Origin: Streptomyces sp. NBC_00433
GTDB lineage: Bacteria > Actinomycetota > Actinomycetes > Streptomycetales > Streptomycetaceae
DNA length: 64,000 bases
Reading direction: 5' to 3'
Assembly (NCBI GenBank): GCA_036015235.1
Contig: CP107926.1
Location: 1,240,001-1,304,000, forward strand
Below, in pieces: positions 46,507 through 64,000 of this stretch. A program made the position numbers and the translations under genes. The first letter of the stretch is position 1. Each line of letters starts with the position of its first letter. A model generated the notes under the pieces. That model ran no database searches. It was not told the DNA's origin and was given only the letters and a program-made list of their open reading frames with translations.

Positions 46507-46701
46507 CTTTTGCCAGGCAGTCTCCCTGGCCGCGCCCGGAGGCGCCGTCGCAGCCGCCCGGCGTGTCGGGCATTTTCCCCGGGCACCTCGGGCGTCGGCC
46601 CGTTTCTTACCCGCATTTACACCGGTTCGTTGTTGTGCTCCCATTCGCGGCCTGGCGCCGCCCGGGATTCCTCGACGTACCGCATCGAGGGAAGGTTCTC
46701 C

Positions 46702-48225: not shown

Positions 48226-48309
48226 ACCCCGCCGGTACCGCCCTTCCCGGCGTGCGGAGATGACACCTCCGTCCGGTGGCCGCTGTCGTGCGAAGGGCGC
48301 TTACCGGCT

Positions 48310-48750
48310 TCAGCTGTAAGTCAGCGAGGTGAGGGAGCAGTAGCGGACGTACGGGCCCGGGTAGACGTACATGTCCTGGCAGTTGCCGTTCGCGCTGATG
48401 GTCGAGGTGCCCGCGGTGATGCTGTAGCGGTAGCCCTCCCAGTAGGGGGTCTTGGGATCGTTCTCGCAGAAGCCGGTGTTGATCGCGAGAGACGTGGCGG
48501 AGGCGGGGATGTAGACGGTGAAGTACTTGACGCCGCCGGACGCGTAGCTCGATCCGTCGGGGTAGTACCAGCCGGAGCCGTTGTCCACGCTCATGCCGTA
48601 CGGCAGGCCCGCGGAGCAGCTGAGGGCCACCTGGAGCGTGCGCATGGTGTCGGCCGAGGCCGCCTGCGGTGCGGCGACCGCGATGAACAGCACGGAGGCG
48701 GCCGCCGACAAGACGGCGACGAGTCTCCTGCGCAGACGTCCTGAGATCAT
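48310..48750 (-). CDS. Small secreted protein of unknown function
   Basis: 146 residues. Signal peptide MISGRLRRRLVAVLSAAASV... ends near AASAD. The mature ~105 residues (MRTLQVALSCSAGLPYGMSV) are rich in Tyr/Gly/Ser with four or five Cys (LSCSAG, GFCENDP, GNCQDMY, RYCSLTS), suggesting two disulfides. I do not recognise the fold; a small extracellular beta protein is likely. AAGGA is about 13 nt from the ATG, a weak spacing, but no better in-frame start exists. It is convergent with the helicase gene and divergent from the NB-ARC gene. Confidence 0.7.
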   Translation of the reverse strand: MISGRLRRRLVAVLSAAASVLFIAVAAPQAASADTMRTLQVALSCSAGLPYGMSVDNGSGWYYPDGSSYASGGVKYFTVYIPASATSLAINTGFCENDPKTPYWEGYRYSITAGTSTISANGNCQDMYVYPGPYVRYCSLTSLTYS

Positions 48751-49005
48751 GGGTGCACCACTGTCCTTCCAGGTGTCCTCTCGCGCGTCGGGGACCCGCG
48801 TCCCGGACGGCGGCGGCGGCACACTGCGGCCGTGCGGCCCATGGTGGCTGGCGGCCGCCGCGGGCACCTCGGATTCCGTGCACCGCCGGACACCGCCGGA
48901 CGCCACCGGAAACCGGCGTACGCCCTTCGCCGGTGCCCACCCGCTGTTAAGCTGCGATCACGCCATCAGTGTCCGATCCCGTACTCACCGGAGAACGATG
49001 CGACG

Positions 49006-51453
49006 ATGGAACGCGGCGTACAGCAGACAGTGCCGGAACCCCCCGATTCGCCGGCCGCGGCCGCGGCGGCGGTGCGGACGCTGGAGGAACTGGCCGCGCT
49101 GCTGCGCGATCTGCGGCGCCGGCACGCGCGCAGCCGCCGGGACAGCACCCTGACCTACCGCGAGCTGGCCACGATGACCGGGTGGTCCCGGACGGCGATC
49201 GCCGAATACTTCACCGCCCGCACCCTGCCACCGACCGAGCGCTTCGACGCACTGCTCGACGTGCTGGGCGCCACACCGGCCGAGCACCGCGCGCTGGCCA
49301 CCGCCCGCGACCGGATCGAGGAGGCCAACCGCCGCTCCAGGGGGGCCGGGAGCGCGCATCGCACACCTGCCGCTCCCCCGGCCGGCCGGCCGTCCGCACG
49401 GCCGCGGGAGGAGCCGACGCCGCGCCAACTACCCGCCGGATCGGGCATGTTCACCGGTCGCACCCGCGAACTTGCCTGCCTGGACGCCGCTCTTGCCGAG
49501 CAGTCGAAGGCCGACGGCACACCGGTGATCTGCACGATCGGCGGGATGGGCGGCATCGGCAAGACCTGGCTGGCCCTGCACTGGGCCCACGGACGCCTGG
49601 ACCGGTTTCCTGACGGCCAGTTGTACGTCGACCTGCGCGGGTTCGACCCCACCGGCCGGCCCCTGGACCCGGCGGCCGCGCTGCGCGGCTTCCTGGCCGC
49701 CCTGGGCGTGGCGCCGACCGCGATCCCGCCGGAACAGGAGGCCCAGGCCGCGCTGTACCGCAGCATCACGGCCAACAGGCGAATGCTGCTCGTGCTGGAC
49801 AACGCGCGCGACACCGCCCAGGTCGTCCCCCTGCTGCCGGGCGGTGCGGCATGCTCGGTGCTGGTCACCAGCCGCAGGCAGCTGACGGGACTGATCACCG
49901 CGCACGGCGCTCGTCCCCTGCCCCTCGACGTGCTGCCCGAGGACGAGGCACGCCAGTTGCTCGCCCGCCACCTCGGCCCCGGCCGGCTGCACCTGGAACC
50001 GGAGGCGGCAGCCACCGTGCTGACCTGCTGCGCCGGGCTGCCGCTGGCGCTGGGCATCGCCGCCGCCTGCGCCGTCACCCACCCCGGCCCGTCGCTGACG
50101 GCGCTGGCCACCGAGCTGGGCGACACCGCCCATCGGCTCGACGCCCTGGACGGCGGAGAGCCGCAGGCCGACCTGCGCGCCGTACTGTCCTGGTCCCGCC
50201 ACGCGCTGTCCCCGGATGCCGCCGATGTGCTGGGCCTCCTGGCGATCGCTCCCGGGCCCGACATCACGGCGGCCGCGGCCGCGAGCCTGCTCGCCCTGCC
50301 GCCCGCGGCGACCCGCGCCCTGCTGCGCGAGCTGGACCGCGCCCACCTGATACAGCTGCACGCCCCCGGCCGCTACCGCATGCACGACCTGCTCAGGCTG
50401 CACGCCGCCGAAAACGCCCGCGACCACCACACTCCGGCGGACCGACAGGCGGCACTGCGCCGGGTGGTGGACTTCTACGCGGTCACCGCTCGGGCGGGCG
50501 CCCGATTACTCGCGCCGCACCAACCCGCACCGCGGTCGGGCGAATCCGCGCCGGACCGCGTACCGCACCCGCTGCGGGACGCGGCGTCGGCGATGAGCTG
50601 GTTCGATGCCGAGCACACCAACCTGCTGGCCGCCCAGCAGGTGGCCCGCGGCCACGGCTGGGACGCCCAGGTCTGCGACCTGGCCTGGGCGCTGGACCCC
50701 TACAACCGCCGACGCGGACACCTGGAGGCGCAGGCCGACTCCTGGCAGCGGGCCGTTGCCGGCGCCCAGCACCTCGACGACCCCGCACTCCGCGCCCAGG
50801 CCCACCAGATGCTCGGTGACGCCCACGCCCAGCTCGGCAGGACCGCCGACGCCCTGCGGCACCTGGCTCAGGCCCTCGACCTGGCCGAGCTCTCCGGCGA
50901 CGTCGCGGCTCAGGGCGAGATCCACCACAGCCTCGGCGGCGCCTGGGAGCGGCACAGCGACGACCGCCGCGCGCTGCAGCACGCCCAGCGCGCGCTGACG
51001 ATCTTCCGTGCGCAGGGCGACACCTACCGGCAGGCCCGCGCGCTCAACGGTGTGGGCTGGCTGCAGACCCGGCTCGGCGACTACACCGAAGCACGGGCCA
51101 ACTGCCGGGCCGCCCTCACCCTGCTGCGCCAGCACCCCTCCGACCACCGCCAGCTCGGCGAGTCCAGCACCCTCGACAGCCTCGGCCACATCGCCCGCTG
51201 CCTCGACGAACACGACCGCGCCCTCGACTACTACCGCCAGGCCCTGGCCATCTGCCGCACGCAGGGCCACAGCCACCTCGAAGCCGACGTCCTGCGCCAC
51301 ATCGCCGAGATCCTCCTCGCACAACGCCGCCCCGGCCGGGCCCGCGACACCTGGCAGCAGGCCCGCGAGCTCCTCACCGCCCAGCACCGGCTCAACGACG
51401 CCGAGCACGTCCAGCGGCAACTGGACAGCCTCGGTCAACCGCCGGTCGCCTAG
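49006..51453 (+). CDS. HTH / NB-ARC / TPR regulator (AfsR-like, without SARP domain)
   Basis: 815 residues. N-terminal helix-turn-helix of XRE type (LTYRELATMTGWSRTAIAEY, FTARTLPPTERFDALLDVLG), a linker, then an NB-ARC ATPase: Walker A CTIGGMGGIGKTWLALHWA, Walker B RMLLVLDNARD, sensor CSVLVTSRRQ, CCAGLPLALGIAA and MHDLLRLHAAE. The C-terminal ~270 residues are tetratricopeptide repeats (GRTADALRHLAQALDLAELS, YTEARANCRAALTLLRQHP, DRALDYYRQALAICRTQG). Such STAND proteins switch by ATP-driven oligomerisation after signal binding to the TPRs. Target and signal are unknown. GGAGAA lies about 10 nt before the ATG; the longer upstream frame is not family-like. Confidence 0.9.
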   Translation: MERGVQQTVPEPPDSPAAAAAAVRTLEELAALLRDLRRRHARSRRDSTLTYRELATMTGWSRTAIAEYFTARTLPPTERFDALLDVLGATPAEHRALATARDRIEEANRRSRGAGSAHRTPAAPPAGRPSARPREEPTPRQLPAGSGMFTGRTRELACLDAALAEQSKADGTPVICTIGGMGGIGKTWLALHWAHGRLDRFPDGQLYVDLRGFDPTGRPLDPAAALRGFLAALGVAPTAIPPEQEAQAALYRSITANRRMLLVLDNARDTAQVVPLLPGGAACSVLVTSRRQLTGLITAHGARPLPLDVLPEDEARQLLARHLGPGRLHLEPEAAATVLTCCAGLPLALGIAAACAVTHPGPSLTALATELGDTAHRLDALDGGEPQADLRAVLSWSRHALSPDAADVLGLLAIAPGPDITAAAAASLLALPPAATRALLRELDRAHLIQLHAPGRYRMHDLLRLHAAENARDHHTPADRQAALRRVVDFYAVTARAGARLLAPHQPAPRSGESAPDRVPHPLRDAASAMSWFDAEHTNLLAAQQVARGHGWDAQVCDLAWALDPYNRRRGHLEAQADSWQRAVAGAQHLDDPALRAQAHQMLGDAHAQLGRTADALRHLAQALDLAELSGDVAAQGEIHHSLGGAWERHSDDRRALQHAQRALTIFRAQGDTYRQARALNGVGWLQTRLGDYTEARANCRAALTLLRQHPSDHRQLGESSTLDSLGHIARCLDEHDRALDYYRQALAICRTQGHSHLEADVLRHIAEILLAQRRPGRARDTWQQARELLTAQHRLNDAEHVQRQLDSLGQPPVA

Positions 51454-51607
51454 GGTCTGTCGTCTGGATCTCCGCGGCGTCGCGATTTCCTCAAGCTCAG
51501 TCCTGACGGGCAGTCAGGCGAACGAAGGTTCGCCCGACCCCTTCCGGGCGCAGCCGTCCGGTGGCGCGTCACGGCACGGTCGGCGCCGGACCCGGACCCC
51601 CGCCCGG

Positions 51608-52501
51608 CTACCGGTCGGCCGCCGGGCCGGGCAGCGTGTCGACGAGCCGCAGCAGCTCCCGCAGGGCCGGGCTTGCGGCACGCGGCTGGTGGGCCAGGGC
51701 GAGATCCACGGTGGGCATGGGTGCGGTCACATGCTTGAACCGCACCCCGGGGATCCGCAGCGCACGCGCCCGCCCCTCCGGCACGGGGGCGATTCCGGCG
51801 CCGGCTGCCACGCTGAGGAGGAGCTGCTCGTCGTCGGGTTCCTCCCGCACGATGCGCGCGCCGTCGGGCCACAGCTGGCGGGTGATCCGGTCATGCATTC
51901 CGGGGGCGTTCTCGCGAGGCCAAAGGATCACGGGCTCGGCGGCGATGCGCTCGCGGGTGACCCTGCGTTCCCTGGCGAGGGGATGGCCGGCGGGTACGGC
52001 CAGGAGGAGTTCCTCGCGGGCGATGTGCCGGCACTCCACCTCCGCGGTGTCCAGCGGAGGGCGTACGAAGGCCGCGTCCAGCCTCCCGGCCAGCAGTTCG
52101 GCGACGTTGCGCGCCGACCACCCGGTCCGCACGACGAGATCCACCTCCGGGTGATGCGCGCGGAAGGCGGCGATGAGGGCGTCGACGGGGCCGCCGCGCG
52201 CCGACCGGGTGAGAGCCAGGCGCAGTTGCCCCTGCCGTCCGCCGGCCGCCGCCCGGATGCGTTCCTGCGACGCGGCGGCGTGGGCCAGCAGCGCGTCGGC
52301 CTCGCGGGCCACCACCTCGCCGACGGCGGTCAGCCGGCAGCCGCGGTGGTGCCGTTCGATCAGCGGGGCGCCGACCTCGCGTTCCAGTGCCCTGATCTGC
52401 TGGCTCAGGGCGGGCTGGGCGATGTGCAGCCGTTCCGCGGCCCGCGTGAAGTTCAACTCCTCGGCCAGCGCCAGGAAGTACCGCAGCCGCCGCAAGTCCA
52501 T
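51608..52501 (-). CDS. LysR-family transcriptional regulator
   Basis: 297 residues. Typical N-terminal winged helix MDLRRLRYFLALAEELNFTR, AAERLHIAQPALSQQIRALE, then the effector domain (GQLRLALTRSARGGPVDALI). The ATG at 52501 gives the canonical family start; an upstream frame would add 28 atypical residues. Divergent from the D-amino-acid oxidase gene with a 109-nt gap, the usual arrangement for LysR regulators controlling the divergent gene. Probably senses an amino-acid-derived ligand (inference). Confidence 0.93.
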   Translation of the reverse strand: MDLRRLRYFLALAEELNFTRAAERLHIAQPALSQQIRALEREVGAPLIERHHRGCRLTAVGEVVAREADALLAHAAASQERIRAAAGGRQGQLRLALTRSARGGPVDALIAAFRAHHPEVDLVVRTGWSARNVAELLAGRLDAAFVRPPLDTAEVECRHIAREELLLAVPAGHPLARERRVTRERIAAEPVILWPRENAPGMHDRITRQLWPDGARIVREEPDDEQLLLSVAAGAGIAPVPEGRARALRIPGVRFKHVTAPMPTVDLALAHQPRAASPALRELLRLVDTLPGPAADR

Positions 52502-52610
52502 CTTGCGACTATAAGCGCGTCTTATGGAGTTGGGCAGAACTGGTCTTGGACAGCGCGTCAACTCCCCGCCGACAGTGGGACGCACACAGCCCGGCGGTCA
52601 AGGAGGAGGC

Positions 52611-53591
52611 ATGGGCGACATGTTCGACGCGGTCGTCATCGGCGCCGGAGTCATCGGCCTCACCAGCGCGCTGCGCCTCCAGGAGGCGGGCGCCCGGGTC
52701 GCCGTGGTCACGGCGGAGCCGTCGGCCGAGACGACGTCCTCGGTGGCGGCGGCCGTCTGGTACCCGACCCGCACGGCGTTCGAGGACCGCGTCCTTGGCT
52801 GGGCCACCCGGACCTACGACGAGTTCGCCCGCGAGGCGGCGGACGGTGTGCCCGGCGTGGTGATGCGCCCGACCCGCATGCTGCTGCGCGGCGCGGCATC
52901 CGGCCCTCCCTGGTGGGCCGCGGCCGTCCCCGACTTCCGTGCCCTGGGGAGGGAGGACGTACGCGCCCCCTTCGCCGCGGGCTGGGCTTTCACCGTTCCG
53001 TCCGTGGAGATGTCCCGCTACCTCCCGTGGCTCCAGGGGCGTTTCACCGGAGCGGGCGGCACCCTGATCCGACGCCGTATGGACGCCCTTGAGCAGGCTG
53101 GCGTGTGGGCTTCCACGGTGGTGAACGCCTCCGGCCTGGGCGCTCGCACCCTGTGCGGCGACACCGACGTGCGGCCTGTGCGGGGGCAGTTGGTCCTCGT
53201 GGCGAACCGGGGCCTGGACACGTCCGTGCGCGACGAGGACAACACCGACGGCTACACCTACGTCCATCCGCGCAGCACGGACATCGTCCTCGGCGGCAGC
53301 TTCGAGGTGGGCGAGTGGGACACCGCCGCGTCCCCGGCCGTCGCGGCCGCCATCCTGCGCCGCTGCACCGAGCTGCTGCCCGAGCTCGCGGGCGCCCCTG
53401 TGATCGGCCACCAGGTCGGTCTCAGGCCCCACCGCAACGGCGGCGTCCGTCTGGAGACCGACCTGCGCCCTCCGGGCAGGGTGAAGCGGATGGTCCACAA
53501 CTACGGCCACGGAGGCGCCGGCGTCACCCTGGCGTGGGGCTGCGCGGACGCCGTCGCGGCCCTGATCGCCGGGGCCGCCGGCCCAGAGTGA
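52611..53591 (+). CDS. FAD-dependent D-amino-acid oxidase
   Basis: 326 residues, family length. N-terminal Rossmann motif VVIGAGVIGLTSALRLQEAG, the STSSV-like loop TTSSVAAAVWYPT, RGQLVLVANR, the substrate-carboxylate Arg in VGLRPHRNGGVRLE, and the C-terminal family signature HNYGHGGAGVTLAWG. Oxidises D-amino acids to 2-oxo acids with release of ammonia and hydrogen peroxide; no signal peptide. AAGGAGGAGG directly precedes the ATG at 52611, giving a confident start. Likely regulated by the divergent LysR protein. Confidence 0.95.
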   Translation: MGDMFDAVVIGAGVIGLTSALRLQEAGARVAVVTAEPSAETTSSVAAAVWYPTRTAFEDRVLGWATRTYDEFAREAADGVPGVVMRPTRMLLRGAASGPPWWAAAVPDFRALGREDVRAPFAAGWAFTVPSVEMSRYLPWLQGRFTGAGGTLIRRRMDALEQAGVWASTVVNASGLGARTLCGDTDVRPVRGQLVLVANRGLDTSVRDEDNTDGYTYVHPRSTDIVLGGSFEVGEWDTAASPAVAAAILRRCTELLPELAGAPVIGHQVGLRPHRNGGVRLETDLRPPGRVKRMVHNYGHGGAGVTLAWGCADAVAALIAGAAGPE

Positions 53592-53659
53592 GCCGCCGCC
53601 GGCAACTCCCGCTCGTACTTCTCCCGCCGCTCTCGTTCCCGAGGATTGGGTGTGCGCTG

Positions 53660-54280
53660 ATGGATACGGATCCCGTGCCGGATGTGGACTCCGCCGGACC
53701 CGCGGAGATCAGTACGTCCACCACCGCGGCCCCGGCCAAAGGGCTGGAAGGCCCGGTCACGCCCGGGAGACCGTTCCTGCCACCGGGCAAGTGGTACGCC
53801 CGCTCCGCGCTGACCTGCCTTTTCGTCGTCGGCCTGCTCTTCCGCGCACTGAAAGGCGACCGGTCCCTCGCCGAGCTGTGGGCCCTCGCCTTCCCGGTCT
53901 TCCTGGTCGGCTGCGCCGTCGTCCGCGGCACGTGGCGGGCCACGGCGACGTGGTGGCTGCTGCACCGCCACGGCGTGACCACCGTCGCCACCTACGCGGG
54001 CTACGAGCCCGGTGAGGACGGCAACTCGCCCGGCACCAGGATCTACCACTTCACCGCCCTCTCCGGCACCACCCACGAAATCCGCCGCAGCGGTTTCGAG
54101 TCGGGGCCCTTCGAGGCGGGGATCTCCTACGACCCCGCCAGGCCCGACCTCGCGAGAGGCCCGGCCCAGCCGTGGGCGAGAACCCTCATCCTGCTGGCCC
54201 ACCTCCTCACCGGCGTGCCGGTCACGCTCCTCACGGTGGCCTACCTGCTGTGGTATTTCACCACCGCCCCGCGCGCCTAG
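53660..54280 (+). CDS. Membrane protein of unknown function (DUF3592-like)
   Basis: 206 residues. A Pro/Thr-rich cytoplasmic N-terminus (~45 residues), two close hydrophobic segments (ALTCLFVVGLLFRALKG and WALAFPVFLVGCAVV), a soluble domain (VTTVATYAGYEPGEDGNSPG, HFTALSGTTHEIRRSG) resembling DUF3592-type extracytoplasmic domains, and a final membrane segment (LILLAHLLTGVPVTLLTVAY). The ATG at 53660 is a likely start though its ribosome site (GAGG) is far. It begins 68 nt after the oxidase gene and could be cotranscribed; no functional link is visible. Confidence 0.72.
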   Translation: MDTDPVPDVDSAGPAEISTSTTAAPAKGLEGPVTPGRPFLPPGKWYARSALTCLFVVGLLFRALKGDRSLAELWALAFPVFLVGCAVVRGTWRATATWWLLHRHGVTTVATYAGYEPGEDGNSPGTRIYHFTALSGTTHEIRRSGFESGPFEAGISYDPARPDLARGPAQPWARTLILLAHLLTGVPVTLLTVAYLLWYFTTAPRA

Positions 54281-55272
54281 GCCTGGCCGTGCATCGGGAG
54301 CGTGGTGGGCCCCTTCGGCCGGGGCGTGGAGGGCCGGCGGCAGGCAGCTGTCGTGCCGGGCACACCGGGGATGCGCTCCCGTACGGCCTGCGGCAGTCGT
54401 GCAACTGCGATGTTGTCGGTGAGGCCGGTCGGCAGGAGCGGCTCGGATACGGCTCATTCCTCGAAATCCGGCAGAAGCGCAGTTGCCCGCAGGTGTGGAA
54501 ATGCAGGAACACGGGGCGCGGAGTACAGGAATACGAGAAAGAGCACGGGCTGGTATCAGCCGGCCGCAGGAGGCAAGAAAATACAGGCCGGGAGGGCGAC
54601 CTGAGGGAAAGGGACCACTTGGCCGCGAGGGCGGTTAAGGGACAACCCGACAGGAGCGCTTGTGCGGAGCTGTCGTTCTGGGCTGCCAACACCCTTCTTG
54701 GTTACGATAGTTGACGAATCGTCGGTCATGCTAGCCGCGGCCGTCGCAATCCGTCAATACGGGGAATTTGGGGCCTGTGTGATGGATCGGCACGGCAGAG
54801 ATGGATGAGGTATTTGCGGTCCTCCCGGACGGGGGCTTGACAGCGCAGAATTCAGCGATGAAAGTTCGGAGTGGGAATACGGCACACCCTCGCCGACAGT
54901 TCCGCCTCCCATTGATCCAGACCATCGGCCGACGCAGGCCGGTCGATAAATACCGTCGGGGACGAGACCTTCACCGGTTCACCGGTTCCGGCGCCTGCCG
55001 CTGTTCCCGCCGGCTACGCCGTTCCCGGTAAACCGGGAGCGGGCAAAGCTGGAAACGCGGACGGGGTTCGGGGTTCGGTCGCCCGACGCAGGCCGACTCG
55101 ACGCGTCCTGGGCAGGAGCGGGAGCGGCCGCCCCCGATTCCCCCTGGGCGGTCGGCCTGCTCGCGGCCACCTTGGCCGTCGCACGGGCCGAGCCCGTCGG
55201 CGGCGGCGAAAGGAGCGGACGGCGGTTGAGGCGGGACGACATGACGACAGGTCGACACGAAGGAGGAACGCC
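54281..55272. other. 992-nt region without a convincing gene
   Basis: Less G+C-rich than its surroundings around 54400-54960. Short frames on both strands lack ribosome sites and family features. Contains TGGTTACGATAG (54699-54710), also present at 45796-45807, directly followed by TTGACG. The last ~300 nt should hold the promoter of the adenylation-condensation gene. No IS element or tRNA was recognised. Confidence 0.6.
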
Positions 55273-58200
55273 GTGACCGGCAAGGACATCCGGGCCCGGC
55301 TCGCCGCTGACCCCGAGTTGGGGGCGGGCAACGTGCTGTCCGCGCTGCTGGCTCTCGGGGCCGACCCGGCGGGCCCCGGCGCGGCCTTCGACACCCCCGT
55401 TGACGGCCGCCCCGCCGGCCGTCCGCTGACGCTCGGCGAGCTGCGCGAGCGGGTCGCCGCTCGGGCGGCCTGGTGGCACGCGCACGGCGTCGGCCCGCGC
55501 GACCCGGTGGCGGTGTACGTGTCGGGGGCCGCGGACTGCCTGCTGACCTTCCTGGCCCTGACCTGGCTCGGGGCGATTCCCGCGCTGATGGACCGGTCCC
55601 TGACGGGCGACGCCGCCGCCGAGTACGTACGGCGGCTGCGCCCGGTGGCACTGGTGACCGACCCCGGGCACCGCGCCCTGCTGGCCGACTACGACCTGGG
55701 GGGCGTCGCCCTGCACGCGGAAGCGGCGGACACCGGCACCGCGGACCCGGCGGACGCGCCCGCGCACTACCGCCACCACGCCGACGACCCGGTGGCCGTC
55801 ACCCACTCCGCGGACACCACCCGGGTGCCCGCGGCCGTGGTGCACTCCCACGCCGGCCTCTTCGCGGCCATGCGGCTTTTCCAGCTGACGGCCCCGCCCG
55901 CCCAGGGCGCCGAGCGGATGCTCGGCGCGCTGCCCGCCGCCCACGCGGCCGGCGTCCAGGCGCTGAACATGGCGCTGTGCCTGCGCAGCGACCCGCTGTT
56001 CCTGTCCGCGCCGAACGACGGCCCCGCGGTGGTGGCCGCGATCGAGCACTGGAAGCCCGGTGGGGTCCTCGGCTCCGGCGCCACCTGGGCGCAGCTGGCC
56101 GGGATGGACCTGACGGCGCACGACCTCGGCTCCGTGTCGCTGTGGTGGAACACCGGGGACTGCGTGCCCGAGCCGTACATCCGCAAGCTGGTCGCGGTCG
56201 GCTCGCACGAGACCGTCACCCGCGAGGGCGTCCGCCGTACCGCCGGCTCCAGCTTCCTGGACGGCATGGGCTCCACGGAGGCGGGCCACCCCGTCTTCCA
56301 CATCACCCACACCCGCACGACCGAGAAATACGGGCGATGCGTCGGCGTCCCGCACGGCTTCGCCGAGGTGGCACTGCTCGACCTGGCGACGGGCCGGGAG
56401 GTCCCGGTCGGCGAGGTCGGCCACCTGGGCGTGCGGGGACCGGCCCTGGCGCCAGGCCACTGGAACGACTCGGCGGCGACGTACCGCAGCCGGCGGGACG
56501 GCTACCACCTCACCGGCGACCTGATGTACCGGGACGAGGCGGGTTTCTATTACCACGTCGACCGGGCGGCGGACGCGGTGCCGCTGGGCGGCGGGGAGTG
56601 GCTGTACGCGGCGATGTCGGAGGAGCGCGTCCTCGTCGCGTGTCCCGAGGTGCACGACTGCACGGTGGTCTCCGACCGGGTCCACGGCGAGGTCGTCACC
56701 GACGTCCTGCTCGCCCTGCACGCGGGCGCCGACCGGCGGACCGACCGTACGGGCGCGGTCCGCGCCGCCCTGACGTCCGCCGCAGCGGCGACGCTGCGCA
56801 GGGTCGTCGTGGTCGACGACGCGGACCTGGCCGCCGGCCTGGTGCACAAGTCCCTGACGCGCGAGCGGCATCGCGCGCGGACGGCGGGTGCTGACGCGAG
56901 GGCCGCGGAGGGGCCGCCGGTGCCGCCGCTCGCCGAACAGGTGGCCGTCGGCTTCACCGGGGACGGCGAGGGCGAGGGCGAGATGTCCTGGGGCATGTGG
57001 GAGATATGGGGTGCGATGTGCCGGCAGGAGTCCGGACTGCCGATCGGGGGGCGGGCACCGCTGGAGGCCGGCAGGACGCTCGCCGACATCGCGGAGGAGC
57101 TGCGCTACCTGATGGGCCGCTTCCCTGCCATGCGCACCCGGCTGCGCTTCGACGCCACGGGACGGCCCCGGCAGCGCCTCTTCGCCGCCGGCGAGACCGC
57201 CCTTGAGGTCTACGACGCCGACCCGGACGCCGACCCGGACGAGGTCGCCGCGGCGGTCGAGGCGCACTACCGGCGCACCCCCTTCGACTACGCGAACGCC
57301 TGGCCGGTCCGTATGGCGGTGGTGCGGCAGCACGGCAGGCCGGTGCAGCAGGTGACCATCCTGCACCACCTGGTGATGGACGGGCGCGGCGGTGCGATCA
57401 TGCTCCGCGACGTGGGGAAGCGCGAGACCGCGCCGGCCACCGGTATGCAGCAACTCGAACAGGCGCGCTGGCAGCGGTCGTCCGCCGGGCAGCGGCAGAG
57501 CGAGCGGACGCTGCGGTTCTTCGAGAACATCCTGCGGACGGTGTCCGCGGGGCAGTTACCCGGACCCACGGACCCGCGCACGCCGCGGCACTGGATGGCC
57601 GAGTTCCGCTCACGGGTGCTGGCCGAGGCCCTGCCGATGATCGCCGCGCGAACGGGCGCCGGGACGCCGGCCGTCCTGCTGGCGCTGTTCGCGCTCGGCC
57701 TGCACCGGGCCACCGGCATCAGCCCCGTGGTGGTCCGCCCGGTGATCAGCAACCGCTTCCGGCCGGGCCTCTCGGACGTGGTGTGCCCCGTCTCGCAGTC
57801 GGGCATGTGCTCCCTGGACGTCGAGGGAGCCACCGCCACCGAGGTCGTCGAGCTGACCGGGCGGGCCAGCATCTCCGCCTGGAAGTACGCCTATTACCAG
57901 CCGGAGGACCTGGACGCGCTGATCGCCCGGCTCTCCCGCGAGCGCGGCGAGGACATCGTCATCGGGACGTACTTCAACGACCGCACCGCGCACGCCCCGG
58001 CGCCGGACGCCGCCCGGCAGGTGACCGCCGACGAGCTGGCGGAGCAGCTCCGGGCCGCGCGCGACGACACCGCCTTCGCCTGGACCCGGCGGCAGGACAC
58101 CTCGTCCGAGCGGTTCTTCGTCTACGCCGACGACGCGCCGGACGGCGGCCTGGTGTTCGACATCCGCATCGACACTCACTACGTCTCGCCCGCCCAGGCC

Positions 58201-58314
58201 GAGGCCTTCGCCCGGTGCATGGAGGACGCGGCGGTCGAGGCGGCGCTCGAGGACGCGGGCGGCCGCGGGGAACTGCTGGCCGTCGCCGCGCCGCCGGAAA
58301 GGCCGGCCCGTTGA
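55273..58314 (+). CDS. NRPS-like adenylation-condensation didomain protein without carrier domain
   Basis: 1013 residues. GTG at 55273 with AAGGAGG 6 nt upstream. Residues ~10-550 resemble an AMP-forming adenylation/acyl-CoA ligase domain: GVGPRDPVAVYVSGAADCLL, DGMGSTEAGHPVFH (A5), YHLTGDLMYRDEAGFYYHVD (A7-A8), LVHKSLTRE (A10 Lys). The P-loop (A3) is degenerate: THSADTTRVPAAVV where active enzymes have a Ser/Thr/Gly-rich loop ending in Gly-x-Pro-Lys-Gly. From about 570 a condensation/acyltransferase-like domain follows with an intact HHLVMDG (698-704). No carrier-protein Ser motif and no thioesterase are present. The gene stands alone. It may acylate a free amine or alcohol, but substrate and product cannot be inferred. 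Confidence 0.82.
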   Translation: MTGKDIRARLAADPELGAGNVLSALLALGADPAGPGAAFDTPVDGRPAGRPLTLGELRERVAARAAWWHAHGVGPRDPVAVYVSGAADCLLTFLALTWLGAIPALMDRSLTGDAAAEYVRRLRPVALVTDPGHRALLADYDLGGVALHAEAADTGTADPADAPAHYRHHADDPVAVTHSADTTRVPAAVVHSHAGLFAAMRLFQLTAPPAQGAERMLGALPAAHAAGVQALNMALCLRSDPLFLSAPNDGPAVVAAIEHWKPGGVLGSGATWAQLAGMDLTAHDLGSVSLWWNTGDCVPEPYIRKLVAVGSHETVTREGVRRTAGSSFLDGMGSTEAGHPVFHITHTRTTEKYGRCVGVPHGFAEVALLDLATGREVPVGEVGHLGVRGPALAPGHWNDSAATYRSRRDGYHLTGDLMYRDEAGFYYHVDRAADAVPLGGGEWLYAAMSEERVLVACPEVHDCTVVSDRVHGEVVTDVLLALHAGADRRTDRTGAVRAALTSAAAATLRRVVVVDDADLAAGLVHKSLTRERHRARTAGADARAAEGPPVPPLAEQVAVGFTGDGEGEGEMSWGMWEIWGAMCRQESGLPIGGRAPLEAGRTLADIAEELRYLMGRFPAMRTRLRFDATGRPRQRLFAAGETALEVYDADPDADPDEVAAAVEAHYRRTPFDYANAWPVRMAVVRQHGRPVQQVTILHHLVMDGRGGAIMLRDVGKRETAPATGMQQLEQARWQRSSAGQRQSERTLRFFENILRTVSAGQLPGPTDPRTPRHWMAEFRSRVLAEALPMIAARTGAGTPAVLLALFALGLHRATGISPVVVRPVISNRFRPGLSDVVCPVSQSGMCSLDVEGATATEVVELTGRASISAWKYAYYQPEDLDALIARLSRERGEDIVIGTYFNDRTAHAPAPDAARQVTADELAEQLRAARDDTAFAWTRRQDTSSERFFVYADDAPDGGLVFDIRIDTHYVSPAQAEAFARCMEDAAVEAALEDAGGRGELLAVAAPPERPAR

Positions 58315-58380
58315 CCGTGCCGGGTGGCGGCGGCCGATCACCTGTAGGGGACCGCGCCCCAGGGGCGCCTCGCATTCAGC

Positions 58381-58401
58381 CGTGACCGTCAGGCGGTCAC
58401 G
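58381..58401. terminator. Hairpin after the adenylation-condensation gene
   Basis: CGTGACCG (58381-58388), TCAGG loop, CGGTCACG (58394-58401). Confidence 0.55.
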
Positions 58402-58547
58402 CCCCCGGTGCTGCGACCGCACGCAATCCCCCACGGCGGAAAGCCTGCGGACCCGCCGCGGGCAGCCGGCACGATGCGCGAATCCGGCGGGCTGCCGCCC
58501 GCCGGACGCCCGCACCACCTCATCGAAACATGAGTCAGCACCATACT

Positions 58548-58559
58548 CGAAACTTTTCG
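58548..58559. promoter_or_regulatory. CGAAA-type dyad CGAAACTTTTCG
   Basis: CGAAA and TTTCG half-sites with two bases between, about 95 nt upstream of the -35 box of the transporter promoter. Confidence 0.45.
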
Positions 58560-58648
58560 CACAGCCTGCTCGCCGAAGGGGGCTCGCACCAGGCAGGCGG
58601 GCAGCGCGGGACCACATCAGGGTCCCAGACCTGTTTGTGTGAGATGTA

Positions 58649-58678
58649 TTGACGTGTGCCGATGGCTCGACCTAAGGT
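58649..58678 (+). promoter_or_regulatory. Promoter of the ABC transporter operon
   Basis: TTGACG (58649-58654), 18-nt spacer, TAAGGT (58673-58678), close to the major actinobacterial sigma-factor consensus. Confidence 0.7.
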
Positions 58679-58681
58679 GCC

Positions 58682-58692
58682 CGAAACGATCG
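58682..58692. promoter_or_regulatory. CGAAA-type site CGAAACGATCG at the expected start of transcription
   Basis: Begins four bases after the -10 box. Imperfect dyad related to the one at 58702. Confidence 0.4.
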
Positions 58693-58701
58693 CAAGGCGC
58701 A

Positions 58702-58712
58702 CGAAACTTTCG
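58702..58712. promoter_or_regulatory. Perfect CGAAA-N-TTTCG dyad
   Basis: CGAAACTTTCG. Sites built from CGAA-N-TTCG repeats are known (from memory) for the xylobiose-operon repressor BxlR in Streptomyces, also a LacI-family protein. Confidence 0.55.
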
Positions 58713-58836
58713 ATCCGGAGCGGGAGTTCAGGGCGACATCGGGGAGCGTTCGGCTCCCCATCGGGGGCTTGCGAGGCGTAAAAGGGGAGGCGAGCACGCA
58801 TTCCCAGGCGACCCGAAGCGGGAGAATATGCTGAAT

Positions 58837-58848
58837 GTTAACGCTAAC
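58837..58848. promoter_or_regulatory. LacI-type operator GTTAACGCTAAC in transporter leader
   Basis: About 160 nt downstream of the promoter and 432 nt before the binding-protein start, so it would act as a roadblock or serve a second promoter. Confidence 0.7.
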
Positions 58849-59279
58849 CAGGCAAACCATGCGCTGAACCACGGCTTCCGGATTCCCGCCGCATTCGAAG
58901 AGTGCCCGCCCCCGCCGTAATCGGACTCCGTATCGCCACCCCGCAACACCCCGCTCATGGTGCGGTATACATTTGCGCTCACCCTCAGCAAAACGGCCGC
59001 CCTTCGCCTGCTTACCGAACGAACCTCCTCGTCGGCGATGACACGCCGCGTGCCGTCGCCGCCGCTCGTCGCGCACCGCGCGACGGACACCGCGGCGCGG
59101 CGGCTGCCGTTGGGCGACGGTTCGTTCGGGGGCTCCCCGGCCCGCCGTACCAGCCTGCGGCCGGACGACCAGATCAGCACGTGCACGAGACCTTCGGTGC
59201 CCACCAGGCCATCGCCGTTGCACAAACCCCACCAATCCCACTCATTGCGACAGTGACGACAGATCAGGGAGATTCCACG

Positions 59280-60596
59280 ATGACGAGGAAGATTCGCAGC
59301 GCAACAGCTGTGGGGATCGGCTTGGGCATCGCGCTTGCAGCCACCGCCTGCGCCGGCGGCAGCGACGACAGCAGCACCAGCAGCGACAACGGCGGCAGCG
59401 GTTCGTCGGGCGGCAAGGTCACGGTGACCGTCTGGGAGAACGCGCAGCCCGGACCCGGCGCGGAATACTGGAAGACCGCTGCGGCGACGTACCACGCGCA
59501 GCACCCGAACGTCACGATCAAGATCCAGTACGTCCAGAACGAGGACCTCGACGGCAAGCTGCAGACCGCGCTCAACTCGAACTCCGCGCCGGACGTCTTC
59601 CTGCAGCGCGGCGGCGGCAAGATGCAGGCCATGGTCAACGCCGGCCAGCTCCAGACGCTGAACCTGACCGACACCGACAAGGCGAACGTCGGCGCGGCCG
59701 CTCTCGCGGGCGACACGATCGACGGCAAGATCTACGCGATGCCGCTCGACACGGCGCCTGAGGGCATCTACTACAGCAAGGACCTGTTCAAGCAGGCCGG
59801 CATCACCGCCACGCCGACCACGATGGACGAGCTCACGGCGGATGTCGCGAAGCTGAAGGCGATCAAGGTCGCGCCGATCGCGGTGGGTGCCAAGGACGCC
59901 TGGCCGGCCGCGCACTGGTACTACAACTTCGCCTTGCGCGAGTGCAGCCAGGACACCATGACCGAGGCCGGCAAGTCGCTCAAGTTCGACGATCCGTGCT
60001 GGACCAAGGCGGGTGACGACCTGGCCTCCTTCCTGAAGATCAGCCCCTTCCAGAACGGATTCCTGACGGCCCCCGCGCAGCAGGGCGCCGGGTCCTCGGC
60101 AGGCCTGCTGGCGAACCACAAGGCCGCCATGGAGCTCATGGGCAACTGGGACCCCGGAGTGATCGGCACCCTGACCCCGGACCAGAAGCCCCTCCCCGAC
60201 CTGGCCTGGTTCCCCTTCCCGGCCGTGGCCGGCGGCAAGGGCGACCCGAGCGCCATCATGGGCGGCAGCGGCGGATACTCGCTGTCCAAGAACGCGCCGA
60301 AGGAGGCCTTCAACTTCCTCCAGTTCCTGGTGACCAAGGAACAGCAGGAGGGCTACGCCAAGGGCTTCTTCACGATCCCGGTGAACCCGGCCGCCCAGTC
60401 GGTCGTCACCGACTCCTACAACATCTCGGCGCTGCAGGCCTTCAACAAGGCCGCGTACTCCATGCAGTTCCTTGACACCGAGTACGGCCAGAACGTCGGC
60501 AACGCCCTGAACACGGCCGTCGTGAACCTGCTCGCCGGCAAGGGTTCCGCGGCCGACATCGTCAAGGACACGAACAAGGCTGCCGAGAGGGGCTGA
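59280..60596 (+). CDS. Sugar ABC transporter substrate-binding lipoprotein
   Basis: 438 residues. ATG at 59280 with GGGAG 8 nt upstream; the longer upstream frame crosses regulatory DNA. Lipoprotein signal ending LAATAC, then an Asp/Ser/Gly linker. Family-1 binding-protein motifs: VTVTVWENAQPGPGAEYWKT, KLQTALNSNSAPDVFLQRGG, YAMPLDTAPEGIYYSKDLF, MELMGNWDPGVIG, GGSGGYSLSKNAPKEAFNFL. First gene of a four-gene operon ending in GH51, so its likely ligands are arabino-oligosaccharides or related pentose oligomers (inference). It sits outside the membrane and hands sugar to the two permeases. Confidence 0.95.
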   Translation: MTRKIRSATAVGIGLGIALAATACAGGSDDSSTSSDNGGSGSSGGKVTVTVWENAQPGPGAEYWKTAAATYHAQHPNVTIKIQYVQNEDLDGKLQTALNSNSAPDVFLQRGGGKMQAMVNAGQLQTLNLTDTDKANVGAAALAGDTIDGKIYAMPLDTAPEGIYYSKDLFKQAGITATPTTMDELTADVAKLKAIKVAPIAVGAKDAWPAAHWYYNFALRECSQDTMTEAGKSLKFDDPCWTKAGDDLASFLKISPFQNGFLTAPAQQGAGSSAGLLANHKAAMELMGNWDPGVIGTLTPDQKPLPDLAWFPFPAVAGGKGDPSAIMGGSGGYSLSKNAPKEAFNFLQFLVTKEQQEGYAKGFFTIPVNPAAQSVVTDSYNISALQAFNKAAYSMQFLDTEYGQNVGNALNTAVVNLLAGKGSAADIVKDTNKAAERG

Positions 60597-60607
60597 GTAA
60601 GAAGCCC

Positions 60608-61624
60608 ATGAGCGACACCCTGGGTACTGACGCGGCCATCGGCCGCCAGTCGCAGGGCACGTCTCGGGTCGGGGGCGCCGCCACGCCCCCGACCTCGCCG
60701 CGAGCGGCTTCACGCCGCCGCGGCCGTGCCAAGATGCGACTCGAGATCGCCCTCCTGTCCGGACCGGCGATCCTCATGTTCCTGGCTTTCGTGATCTTTC
60801 CGGTCGCGCTCGCCGCGTACTACGGCTTCTACCGCTGGCACGGCTACGGAGCACCCACCGACTGGGTCGGCCTGAACAACTACAAGCTGATCCTCACCGA
60901 CCCCGCGTTCCAGCAGGTCCTGAAGCACAGCTTCATGATCATGGGACTGTCCCTGGTCATCCAGGGGCCGCTGGCGATCATCCTCGCGCTCCTGCTCAAC
61001 CAGAAGATCCGCGGCCGCTCGATCATCCGGGTGCTGATCTTCGTGCCTTACATCATCTCCGAGGTCATCGTCGGCACCGGCTGGAGCCTGATGCTCCAGG
61101 GCGACGGCGCCATGAACGGCCTGCTGCGGCAGATCGGCCTGGGCTCCCTGCAAGCAGACTGGCTCTCCGACCCGAAGCTGGCCATCTGGACGCTGATGGC
61201 CATCATCTCGTGGAAGTACGTCGGCTTCGCGGTGATCCTGATGCTCGCCGGCCTCCAGTCGATCCCCGAGGAGCTCTTCGAGGCCGCCCAGATCGACGGC
61301 GCCTCCTACTGGCAGATACAGCGCCGCATCACGCTGCCGCTGCTGGGACCGACGATCCGCATCTGGGCGTTCCTGTCGATCATCGGCTCCCTGCAGCTGT
61401 TCGACCTCGTCTACATCATCTGGGGCCAGTACGTCTCGGGCACCGCCGGCACCTCGACCATGGCGATCTACATGCTCGCCCAGGGCCGCAACGCGGGCAA
61501 CTACGGCTACGGGAGCGCCATCGCGGTCGTGATGTTCCTGATATCGCTTATCGTGGCGCTGATCTACCAGCGCTTCGTCCTGCGCCGTGACCTACGGGGA
61601 GCCGTCACGGAGGGAACCGTCTGA
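60608..61624 (+). CDS. Sugar ABC transporter permease (MalF type)
   Basis: 338 residues. A basic N-terminal tail (ASRRRGRAKMRLE) then six predicted membrane helices beginning GPAILMFLAFVIFPVALAAYY. The ATPase-docking EAA loop is clear: EELFEAAQIDGASYWQIQRR. Starts 11 nt after the binding-protein gene and overlaps the next gene by one base. No ATPase gene is present; Streptomyces oligosaccharide importers commonly share one ATPase (MsiK) encoded elsewhere. Confidence 0.95.
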   Translation: MSDTLGTDAAIGRQSQGTSRVGGAATPPTSPRAASRRRGRAKMRLEIALLSGPAILMFLAFVIFPVALAAYYGFYRWHGYGAPTDWVGLNNYKLILTDPAFQQVLKHSFMIMGLSLVIQGPLAIILALLLNQKIRGRSIIRVLIFVPYIISEVIVGTGWSLMLQGDGAMNGLLRQIGLGSLQADWLSDPKLAIWTLMAIISWKYVGFAVILMLAGLQSIPEELFEAAQIDGASYWQIQRRITLPLLGPTIRIWAFLSIIGSLQLFDLVYIIWGQYVSGTAGTSTMAIYMLAQGRNAGNYGYGSAIAVVMFLISLIVALIYQRFVLRRDLRGAVTEGTV

Positions 61625-62526
61625 TGAGCGCGACCACTGCAAGATCCTGGTTCTCCTCCGCCGCCGGGCCGAACGGCCAGAGCGGTCGTCGGGTCGGTCG
61701 TGACGCGCCGCAGAAGTGGGGGAGCCCCTTCACCTACTTCGTCGCGCTGCTGTTCATCGGGGTCTGTATCGCTCCGGTGATCTACATCGTGCTCGGCGGA
61801 TTCCGCACCAACTCGCAGATCACCACGAGCCCTGCCGGGCTGCCGCACCCCTGGATCACCGCCAACTACATCAACATCCTGAAGTCCACGAGGTTCTGGG
61901 GCGAGTTCGCGAACTCCGTCCTGGTCGCGCTGGCGAGCACCGTCGGCATCGTCGTCCTCGGCCTGATGGTGAGCTTCGTGATCGCGCGCTACGACTTCAA
62001 GCTCAAAGGCGCGATGTACTCGCTCTTCGCCGCCGGCCTGATGTTCCCGATGGTCATCGCGATCACTCCGCTCTACATCGTCATCAAGGACCTCGGCCTC
62101 ATCGACAACCTGCTCGGCGTGATCGTCCCGCAGATCGCCTTCGGCCTGCCGACGACTGTCATCATCCTGGTGCCGTTCCTGCGCGCCATACCCAATGAGA
62201 TCGAGGAGGCCGCCGCGATCGACGGTACGAGCCGACTCGGATTCTTCGTCCGCATGGTGATCCCGCTGTCGGTGCCCGGTGTGGTGACAGTCGCCATCCT
62301 CGCTTTCATCGGCAGCTGGAACAACTACGTCCTGCCTCTGTACATCCTCAATTCGCAGGCCAATTTCACCCTGCCACTCGGCGTCCAGGCGTTCTCCTCG
62401 CAATACTCCACCGACACGGCGAAGGTCCTCGCGTTCACCTCGCTCGCGATGCTGCCCGCGCTGGTCTTCTTCTCCATTTTCGAGAAACGGATCGTCGGCG
62501 GTCTCACGGGCGCTGTGAAGGGCTGA
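61624..62526 (+). CDS. Sugar ABC transporter permease (MalG type)
   Basis: 300 residues, six membrane helices (FVALLFIGVCIAPVIYIVLG first). EAA loop NEIEEAAAIDGTSRLGFFVR. The stop of the preceding gene and this start share a base (TGATG), so translation is coupled. It forms the membrane channel with the MalF-type partner. Confidence 0.95.
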   Translation: MSATTARSWFSSAAGPNGQSGRRVGRDAPQKWGSPFTYFVALLFIGVCIAPVIYIVLGGFRTNSQITTSPAGLPHPWITANYINILKSTRFWGEFANSVLVALASTVGIVVLGLMVSFVIARYDFKLKGAMYSLFAAGLMFPMVIAITPLYIVIKDLGLIDNLLGVIVPQIAFGLPTTVIILVPFLRAIPNEIEEAAAIDGTSRLGFFVRMVIPLSVPGVVTVAILAFIGSWNNYVLPLYILNSQANFTLPLGVQAFSSQYSTDTAKVLAFTSLAMLPALVFFSIFEKRIVGGLTGAVKG

Positions 62527-62586
62527 TATCCGCTGCAGAACACGCACCCGTTGTGAGCCTGCCCGTGCCGTACCCCGGCAGGGGCA

Positions 62587-62601
62587 GGCCGCTGAGCGGC
62601 C
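62587..62601. terminator. Small hairpin between permease and GH51 genes
   Basis: GGCCGC, TGA loop, GCGGCC. May tune GH51 expression; weak as a terminator. Confidence 0.35.
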
Positions 62602-62643
62602 CCTTCGCTCGGCCCGCGCCACCCCCAGACAAGGACCACTGAA

Positions 62644-64000
62644 TTGCCCCGCGCGCACATCACGCTCAACAGGCAGGCGCTCATCGCTCCTGTCCGACGA
62701 CGCACCTTCGGCTCGTTCGTCGAGCACCTCGGCCGCTGCGTCTACACCGGCCTCTACGAGCCGGGACACCCGACCGCGAACGACGACGGATTCCGCATGG
62801 ACGTCGTCGAACTCGTCAAGGAGCTCGGCAGCACGACCGTCCGCTACCCGGGCGGAAACTTCGTCTCCGGCTTCCGGTGGGAGGACGCGGTCGGTCCGCG
62901 GGAGCAGCGCCCGGTGCGCCGCGACCTCGCGTGGCACGCACTCGAATCGAACCAGGTCGGCCTCGACGAGTTCGCCAGATGGCTCAAGCTCACCGGCTCC
63001 GAGCTGATGCTGGCGGTCAACGTCGCCACGCGAGGCATCCTGCCCGCCCTGGACCTGCTCGAGTACGCCAACCACCCGTCCGGCACGGCGCTGTCGGACC
63101 TTCGCGTCGCCAACGGCACGCCGGACCCACACGACGTCCGCATGTGGTGTCTCGGCAACGAGATGGACGGACCCTGGCAGACCGGCTTCATGACGGCTGA
63201 CGACTACGGCAAGATCGCCGCCCGCACCGCCGCCGCGATGAAGATGGCGGACAAGGACCTCGAACTCGTCGTCTGCGGTTCCTCCGGGTCCGGCATGCCG
63301 ACGTTCGGCGACTGGGAGCGCACGGTACTGGAGCACGCCTACGACCATGTCGACTACGTCTCGTGCCACGCGTACTACCAGGAGCACGACGGCGACCTCG
63401 GCTCCTTCCTCGCCTCGGCAACCGACATGGACTACTTCATCGACACCGTCGTCGCGACCGCCAACCACGTGGGGTTCAAGAAGCGCTCGGACAAGAAGAT
63501 CAACATCTCCTTCGACGAGTGGAACGTCTGGTACCTCAAGGAGCACATGGAGTCGCAGGAGGTCGACACCGAGTGGCGGCACGCTCCTCGGCAACTGGAG
63601 GACATATACACGGTGGCGGATGCCGTCGTCGTCGGCAACCTCCTGATGACGCTCCTCAAGCGCAGCGACCGCGTCACCTCGGCGTCGCTCGCACAACTCG
63701 TCAACGTGATCGCGCCGATCATGACCGAGCCCGGCGGGCCGGCCTGGCGGCAGACGACCTTCTACCCGTTCTCGATCACCAGCCGGCTCGCGTCCGGCGA
63801 CGTGATCCGGCCCGTGATCGAGACGCCGGCCTATGAGACGGCGCGGCACGGCGAGGCAGCCGTCGTCGACGCCGTCGCGACCGTCGACGGGGACCGCGCC
63901 GCGGTCTTCCTCGTCAACCGCGACCTCGCCGAGGCCGCGCAGGTCACGATCGACGTGCGCGGCCTCGGCTCGTCGCGCGTCGTCGAGGCGGTCACGCTCG
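62644..64000 (+). CDS. abfA: GH51 alpha-L-arabinofuranosidase, cytoplasmic (C-terminus cut by window edge)
   Basis: At least 452 residues visible of a family usually near 500. No signal peptide. TTG at 62644 with AAGGA 8-9 nt upstream; it gives the family start LPRAHITLNRQALIAPV. GH51 landmarks: RTFGSFVEHLGRCVYTGLYE, TVRYPGGNFVSGFRWED, the acid/base in WCLGNEMDGPWQ, the nucleophile in ISFDEWNVWYL, and QLVNVIAPIMTEPGGPAWRQ. Removes terminal arabinofuranose from imported oligosaccharides. Last visible gene of the transporter operon, 117 nt after the permease. Confidence 0.95.
   Translation, partial: MPRAHITLNRQALIAPVRRRTFGSFVEHLGRCVYTGLYEPGHPTANDDGFRMDVVELVKELGSTTVRYPGGNFVSGFRWEDAVGPREQRPVRRDLAWHALESNQVGLDEFARWLKLTGSELMLAVNVATRGILPALDLLEYANHPSGTALSDLRVANGTPDPHDVRMWCLGNEMDGPWQTGFMTADDYGKIAARTAAAMKMADKDLELVVCGSSGSGMPTFGDWERTVLEHAYDHVDYVSCHAYYQEHDGDLGSFLASATDMDYFIDTVVATANHVGFKKRSDKKINISFDEWNVWYLKEHMESQEVDTEWRHAPRQLEDIYTVADAVVVGNLLMTLLKRSDRVTSASLAQLVNVIAPIMTEPGGPAWRQTTFYPFSITSRLASGDVIRPVIETPAYETARHGEAAVVDAVATVDGDRAAVFLVNRDLAEAAQVTIDVRGLGSSRVVEAVTL

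What the first reader, a model, noticed from the sequence alone, without database searches (positions are those of the whole stretch)
55273..58314. Solo adenylation-condensation protein with degenerate P-loop and no carrier domain
The order A then C without a T domain is not a normal NRPS module. The A3 loop has lost Gly and Lys while A5, A7, A8 and A10 features and the HHxxxDG of the C domain remain. It may join an acyl-adenylate or acyl-CoA directly to a free nucleophile, or use a carrier supplied in trans. No biosynthetic neighbours are present. This is the best candidate here for undescribed chemistry.
Basis: partly seen in the sequence, partly recalled or inferred. Interest (0 to 1): 0.7.

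Follow-up and report, generated by a model that had tools for sequence, protein, structure and literature searches.

The report
Orphan condensation enzyme with eroded diazotase
A soil actinomycete carries a stray copy of two biosynthetic-cluster genes fused into one, whose first half (related to ATP- and nitrite-using enzymes) has lost key catalytic parts while the second half (a bond-joining domain) looks intact, so it is most likely a leftover re-used as a simple joining enzyme rather than new chemistry.

Summary
The 1013-aa ORF is real: an ANL-type A domain followed directly by a condensation (C) domain, with no carrier domain. In the same genome, 4.36 Mb away, the same pair lies as two adjoining genes (74% and 66% identical) inside a conserved 19-gene type II PKS-like cluster with separate carrier proteins and a PPTase. 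Ten of 35 genus genomes and five Kitasatospora loci carry it. The A domain belongs to the diazotase/N-nitrosylase clade (CmaA6, AvaA6, Tri17). Its A domain has about three times the omega of cluster A domains, but is not neutral; its C domain is as constrained as theirs and keeps HHxxxDG. Elsewhere, only C is left or both are broken. Best reading: a stand-alone condensation enzyme with a pseudo-diazotase N-terminal domain, probably using carriers in trans. A slow relic is the main rival. Interest is moderate; the uncharacterised parent cluster is more interesting.

The parts
55273..58314 (+). Whole ORF, 1013 aa, fused A-C protein (orphan copy)
   Evidence: orthologues in G030 (92%) and G015 (81%)
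55273..56892 (+). N-terminal ANL domain of the diazotase/N-nitrosylase clade (aa 1-540), eroded active site
   Evidence: AvaA6 model E 4.6e-122 but 408 bits against cut-off 975; top fold hit CmaA6 8ZTZ, 37% identity
55807..55836 (+). A3/P-loop (aa 179-188), SADTTRVPAA; cluster copies SSGTTRxP[AT]A; canonical [ST]SGTTGxPK in 5 rows
   Evidence: low model confidence at 182-184
56137..56187 (+). Family motif GD-xx-HE (aa 289-305); His299 is Pro in all 3 orphans
   Evidence: motif picked out after seeing the data
56269..56280 (+). A5 motif GSTE (aa 333-336), Glu kept
   Evidence: a conserved Glu of CreM (E352) coordinates Mg2+ (PMC11705231, passages); equivalence by motif, recalled
56512..56520 (+). 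A7 motif TGD (aa 414-416), kept
56815..56871 (+). A10 region (aa 515-533); the TGK of all 24 non-orphan rows is lost
56878..56919 (+). Linker at the fusion point; in two-gene cluster copies a stop and a start lie here
56920..58257 (+). Condensation domain (aa 550-995)
   Evidence: model pLDDT 86.9, pTM 0.85; C-domain fold, Z up to 26.5
57364..57384 (+). HHxxxDG motif (aa 698-704), intact

Best explanation
An orphaned, fused duplicate of the adjoining diazotase-family A gene and C gene of a conserved type II PKS-like cluster. Shown: relationship to that pair, loss of P-loop core residues, of the A10 Lys and of a family-wide His in A, retention of the C catalytic motif, and maintenance of the whole reading frame. 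Inferred: the A domain no longer activates anything and persists as a folded N-terminal platform (pseudoenzyme), while the C domain works as a stand-alone acyl transferase that takes an acyl group from a carrier protein supplied in trans (likeliest the carriers of the paralogous cluster in the same genome) and joins it to an amine or alcohol.
For: Pair with 74%/66% identity in the same genome, adjoining, in a cluster with ACPs and PPTase. The 3 orphans form one clade (100/100) in both A and C trees, among the genus's cluster copies. A10 Lys lost 3/3, kept 24/24 others; His299 lost 3/3, kept 24/24. Of positions invariant in 24 rows, 8 of 16 core motif residues are changed against 12 of 100 elsewhere (p=0.0011); with wide motif windows 10 of 33 against 10 of 83 (p=0.028). 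Omega (GY+F3X4): solo A 0.166 (bootstrap 0.126-0.223), cluster A 0.056-0.061 (0.038-0.077 and 0.040-0.071); solo C 0.125 (0.085-0.175), cluster C 0.082-0.164. Cluster-invariant positions changed: A 76/330, C 15/127. No stop in the three copies; neutral simulation at the window-G015 divergence gives a mean of 4.2-7.3 stops and stop-free genes in 0-6 of 300 runs per setting. C kept where A is lost: SM10 (decayed A, open C) and A. acididurans (C alone). All 3 orphans lie in genomes that also carry the cluster, which is in 10 of 35.
Against: Solo A is still under purifying selection: omega=1 rejected, lnL -2950.3 against -3016.4, more than dead weight needs. Within the orphans, A and C omega do not differ significantly (ratio 0.84-2.2). 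The core-motif set was drawn after I had seen the alignment, and on the 15 cluster rows it gives only p=0.051 (8/19 against 68/311). A stop-free A part alone arises in 10-48 of 300 neutral runs, and a stop in A would also cut off C. In Tue 6430 the orphan C is broken too, and SM10 keeps C without the cluster. No neighbour, substrate or expression evidence. Co-occurrence of orphans and cluster is not independent, as the orphans share one origin.
Confidence: 0.57

Rival explanations
1. A non-functional relic in slow decay: duplicated, fused, no longer used; the frame has simply not yet broken.
For: Orphan A omega about threefold that of cluster A; P-loop eroded differently in G015 and in G000/G030; other stray copies are broken wholly (Tue 6430) or in part (SM10); found in only 3 of 150 family genomes sampled.
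Against: omega=1 rejected for both domains; no stop or frameshift in 3 copies, against a neutral mean of 4.2-7.3 stops; active-site positions hit more than other invariant ones, which points to a fold retained without catalysis (with the caveats given above); C as constrained as in the cluster.
Confidence: 0.28
2. A working enzyme with altered A chemistry: the remodelled P-loop and A10 now serve a different activation or an ATP-independent step, coupled to C.
For: A still constrained; A5 Glu and A7 Asp kept 3/3; the parent clade is strongly conserved (omega about 0.06) with an unusual P-loop.
Against: The three orphans do not share one new motif: SADTT, SADTT and SSGDA at A3; AGLVHK, SGPVDK and PAGEARK at A10. 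A new function should hold its new residues.
Confidence: 0.1
3. One reading: an acyl-adenylate made by A is handed to C with a free nucleophile.
For: Domain order A-C and no carrier in the ORF; ANL amide bond synthetases such as McbA are in the fold list (6SQ8).
Against: Nearest relatives of known function are diazotases and an N-nitrosylase; A10 Lys and P-loop core lost; the parent cluster has its own carriers.
Confidence: 0.04

Closest known systems
ATP-dependent diazotases CmaA6 / AvaA6 (ava- and cma-type clusters)
   Same: Best family and fold match of the A domain: AvaA6 model E 4.6e-122, CmaA6 structure 37% identity, TM-score 0.88 by target length; the parent cluster also has an AMP ligase, ACPs and KS-type genes in similar order (PMC10777205, passages)
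   Different: A C domain is fused on; P-loop core, A10 Lys and the family His are lost; score well under the AvaA6 cut-off; no nitrite genes beside it
Tri17 (N-nitrosylase, 8TF7/9BQ0)
   Same: Same clade, 30-32% identity; identity of the entries from PMC11705231 (passages)
   Different: Tri17 has a canonical SSGTTGxPK loop (alignment) and no C domain
Condensation enzymes that release or join outside a module: 6CGO (enacyloxin PKS chain release), SgcC5 (4ZNM), OaaC
   Same: C-domain fold; 6CGO is the best profile hit (E 4.8e-18; 18% identity in the fold search); SgcC5 also near; OaaC is free-standing and joins ACP-bound acyl groups to free amines (PMC13142362, a preprint, passages). That 6CGO and SgcC5 are free-standing is recalled
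   Different: None has an N-terminal diazotase-family domain in what I saw; donor and acceptor of the present family are unknown

Membership tests
ATP-dependent diazotase / N-nitrosylase (ANL) | Sequence and fold similarity | tested here: met
   but the AvaA6 equivalog cut-off 975 is not reached (408 bits)
ATP-dependent diazotase / N-nitrosylase (ANL) | P-loop [ST]SGTT core | tested here: not met
   SADTT here and in G030, SSGDA in G015; SSGTT or TSGTT in 24/24 other rows
ATP-dependent diazotase / N-nitrosylase (ANL) | A10 catalytic Lys (TGK) | tested here: not met
   absent in 3/3 orphans, present in 24/24 others; catalytic role recalled
ATP-dependent diazotase / N-nitrosylase (ANL) | Mg2+ Glu of A5 | tested here: met
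   GSTE kept 3/3; role of the CreM Glu from PMC11705231 passages, equivalence by motif
ATP-dependent diazotase / N-nitrosylase (ANL) | Nitrite source nearby | tested here: not met
   the genome's one nitrosuccinate lyase over cut-off is at 5.63 Mb, not beside the gene; a source in trans is not excluded
NRPS condensation domain superfamily | Profile and fold | tested here: met
   PF00668 E 4.5e-18
NRPS condensation domain superfamily | HHxxxDG motif | tested here: met
   HHLVMDG; second His and Asp invariant in 20/20 rows of alignment A3
NRPS condensation domain superfamily | Carrier-bound donor substrate | not testable with these tools
   carriers exist in the paralogous cluster; use by this protein is inferred
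Canonical NRPS module | C-A-T order with carrier in the ORF | tested here: not met
   A-C only
Pseudogene | Stops, frameshifts or neutral evolution | tested here: not met
   frame open in 3 genomes, omega=1 rejected; A omega about threefold raised

The most novel reading that the evidence does not exclude
The parent clade is a diazotase-family enzyme with a rewritten P-loop (SSGTTRxP[AT]A) that works beside a C domain in an uncharacterised, widespread type II PKS-like cluster, and the orphan is a pseudoenzyme-C fusion that diverts or tailors that cluster's carrier-bound product in trans: a secondary-metabolite pseudo-diazotase with a real second life.
Probability: 0.25. Interest if true: 0.6.

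Novelty: new variant of a known kind. Interest (0 to 1): 0.36.

Why it matters
It gives a series (adjoining pair in a cluster, fused pair in a cluster, fused orphan with eroded A, C alone, both broken) for how a condensation enzyme can outlive or leave its cluster. It also points to an unstudied cluster family in which a diazotase-like protein with a non-canonical P-loop is strongly conserved next to a C domain; that parent system is the better place to look for new chemistry.

Tried and rejected
Horizontal spread of the orphan: the helicase control (dS 0.71) suggested it, but that match may be a paralogue (three other matches at 57-72%). rpoB on the right strand gives dS 0.16 (G000-G015) and 0.12 (G000-G030) against 0.21 and 0.08 for the orphan, which fits vertical descent. 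The rpoB figures were read on the wrong strand and are discarded. Cluster copies differ more (dS 0.51 and 0.33 for A), so they may have been exchanged.

Link of the parent A to nitrite: nitrosuccinate lyase over cut-off in 19 of 35 genus genomes, 9 of 10 with the cluster against 10 of 25 without (Fisher p=0.0098), and 21-22 kb from the A gene in 4 of 10 (G000, G004, G005, G011). Suggestive only: in G030, G025, G028, G006 and G015 it lies elsewhere, and G018 has none over cut-off.

Motif enrichment with the GDxxH motif included (15/41 against 5/75, p=1.4e-4) counted a motif chosen after the fact; one search redoes it without that motif: wide windows 10/33 against 10/83 (p=0.028) on 24 rows and 26/67 against 50/263 (p=0.0011) on the 15 cluster rows; core residues 8/16 against 12/100 (p=0.0011) and 8/19 against 68/311 (p=0.051). 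NG86 omegas are higher than the codon-model values; I rely on the latter. One search, a first neutral control per domain, is superseded, which matches the divergence of the whole gene.

Literature: no paper naming the parent cluster was seen in the listings (3 of 3 shown; 3 of 4), nor one on such an A-C fusion (20 of 29 shown; 15 of 40 shown). The library holds open PMC papers only. The cluster's product was not identified. Domain geometry in the full-length model (pTM 0.57) is too unsure to use.

Full report
Observation. The ORF at 55273-58314 (+) is 1013 aa from GTG. Pfam finds AMP-binding at 49-397 and Condensation at 610-881, a weak AMP-binding_C, and no carrier domain. The start agrees with that of the separate A proteins of relatives.

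What the A domain is. NCBIfam's best model is the 3-aminoavenalumate diazotase AvaA6 (E 4.6e-122, 408 bits against a cut-off of 975). The best sequence match of known structure is 8ZTZ, titled 'Structure of ATP-dependent diazotase CmaA6' in the fold search, where it also ranks first (37% identity). Tri17 (8TF7/9BQ0) is near too (identified in PMC11705231, passages seen). These enzymes use ATP and nitrite to make N-N bonds (PMC10777205 and PMC11705231, passages seen). So the domain belongs to a diazotase clade rather than to amino-acid-activating A domains.

Where it comes from. The same genome holds, at 5,655,483-5,658,498, an A protein (74% to aa 1-541) and a C protein (66% to aa 550-1003) as adjoining genes, 4.36 Mb from the window gene. 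They lie in a run of 19 genes: AMP ligase, two small ACP-like proteins (PP-binding just under Pfam's cut-off) and one clear ACP, three ketosynthase-type proteins, HPPD-type enzyme, PhyH, E1 alpha and beta, A, C, KAS III-like protein, a 300-aa protein without clear match, FMN dehydrogenase, aminotransferase, PPTase, LipP1-type esterase. Ten of 35 genus genomes carry A next to C in this cluster (matches at E up to 1e-100), as do five Kitasatospora loci among the 30 loci. In G028 A and C are fused inside the cluster. Of ten two-gene junctions looked at, the genes abut or overlap at a stop/start, eight in different frames and two (G025, G018) in the same frame with a TGA between. None of 44 aligned A, C and fused proteins matches a carrier domain. 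Named records of the same contigs show the genus to be Actinacidiphila and relatives filed under Streptomyces.

Orphan lineage. Outside any cluster, the full-length fusion is found in G000 (window), G030 (92%) and G015 (81%): 3 of 35 genus genomes and the same 3 of 150 family genomes sampled. Window and G030 share the flank (94% nucleotide identity over 54450-64000); with the 20 kb fetched around the G015 copy only 55220-58323, the gene and 53 bases upstream, is shared. The three form one clade (100/100) in both the A and the C tree, among the cluster copies (27 rows each). All three genomes also carry the cluster.

Erosion of A. Of 24 non-orphan rows, 19 read SSGTTRxP[AT]A at the P-loop and 5 read [ST]SGTTGxPK; thus Gly to Arg and Lys to Ala/Thr are old and are shared by strongly conserved cluster enzymes. 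The orphans add S180A/G181D (window, G030) or T182D/T183A (G015). The A10 TGK, kept in 24 of 24 rows, is gone in 3 of 3. His299 of a family GDxxHE motif is Pro in 3 of 3 (kept in 24 of 24). The A5 Glu and A7 Asp are kept in 3 of 3. Motif names and roles are recalled, apart from the CreM Glu. In the full-length model both eroded loops, 182-184 and 522-524, fall under pLDDT 50, as do 1-3, 397-405, 540-546 and 996-1013.

Selection. Codon-model omega: solo A 0.166, cluster A 0.056-0.061, Kitasatospora A 0.083; solo C 0.125, cluster C 0.082-0.164, Kitasatospora C 0.146. Bootstraps (100 each) separate solo A (0.126-0.223) from cluster A (0.038-0.077; 0.040-0.071), while solo C (0.085-0.175) overlaps cluster C (0.059-0.120; 0.119-0.221). 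The A-to-C difference within the orphans is not significant by itself (ratio 0.84-2.2). Omega=1 is rejected for solo A (lnL -2950.3 against -3016.4) and solo C (-2508.4 against -2583.7). Neutral simulation at the window-G015 divergence (377 of 3033 sites) gives a mean of 4.2-7.3 stops over eight settings, and 0-6 of 300 runs per setting without any; none is seen in the orphans. For the A part alone 10-48 of 300 runs are stop-free, so the open A by itself says little. Positions invariant in 15 cluster rows are changed in at least one orphan at 76 of 330 sites in A and 15 of 127 in C. Core motif residues are hit more than other invariant sites: 8 of 16 against 12 of 100 on 24 rows (p=0.0011), but 8 of 19 against 68 of 311 on the 15 cluster rows (p=0.051); the core set was drawn after seeing the alignment. 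The pattern suits a fold that is kept while catalysis is not. The purifying selection left on A also leaves room for a residual role.

Other stray copies. Streptomyces sp. SM10 (L062) has an A remnant with stops beside an open C, and no further A or C copy above 70 bits in the genome. A. acididurans (L063) has a C alone; its genome holds a separate A homologue at 55%. In Streptomyces sp. Tue 6430 (L071, contig end) the C itself is spread over three frames; an assembly fault is not excluded. SM10's C groups with cluster copies of G006/G015 and not with the window's, so separation from the cluster happened more than once; SM10 may have lost its cluster rather than duplicated the pair.

The C domain. 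It keeps HHLVMDG; the second His and the Asp are invariant in 20 of 20 aligned C domains. Modelled alone it scores pLDDT 86.9 and pTM 0.85 and matches C domains with Z up to 26.5. The best profile match in the PDB is 6CGO, titled as condensation-domain chain release from the enacyloxin PKS, and SgcC5 is also near. OaaC, a free-standing C, joins ACP-bound acyl groups to free amines (PMC13142362, preprint, passages seen). By analogy I infer an acyl transferase with a carrier in trans.

Verdict. No held PMC paper describing this fusion or its parent cluster was seen (listings only, two of them cut); subscription papers are not covered.

Noticed in passing
L034:6421-19998 and L035:1-5222 (G000:C1 5.646-5.665 Mb): Uncharacterised, conserved type II PKS-like cluster with a diazotase-family protein whose P-loop lacks the canonical Gly and Lys, HPPD-type enzyme, E1 alpha/beta and a separate C protein; seen in 10 of 35 genus genomes and 5 Kitasatospora loci.
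   Followed up: partly
L036:7595-13274 (G000:C1 about 5.633-5.638 Mb): Nitrosuccinate lyase (779 bits, cut-off 650), NAD_binding_9 protein (CreE-like by my reading), a small cupin-like protein (my reading, no NCBIfam match) and a second AMP-ligase, 8-14 kb upstream of the cluster's first gene.
   Followed up: partly
L037:7882-9360 (-), also G015:C14 and G018:C124: A more distant C-only paralogue, 50-51% identical to the window's C domain, away from the cluster.
   Followed up: no
L059, L066, L067 (Phytohabitans, Micromonospora): Related clusters carry two C-domain genes, apart from the A gene and on the other strand (in L059 one is short).
   Followed up: no
window 44304-54450: About 10 kb of the window, from 44304 to 54450, has only about 0.4 kb in its place in G030 (L038:14077-14473), while both flanks match at 94%.
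   Followed up: no
window 4360-45540: By eye, from the predicted proteins, this part looks rich in secreted carbohydrate-active proteins; not searched.
   Followed up: no
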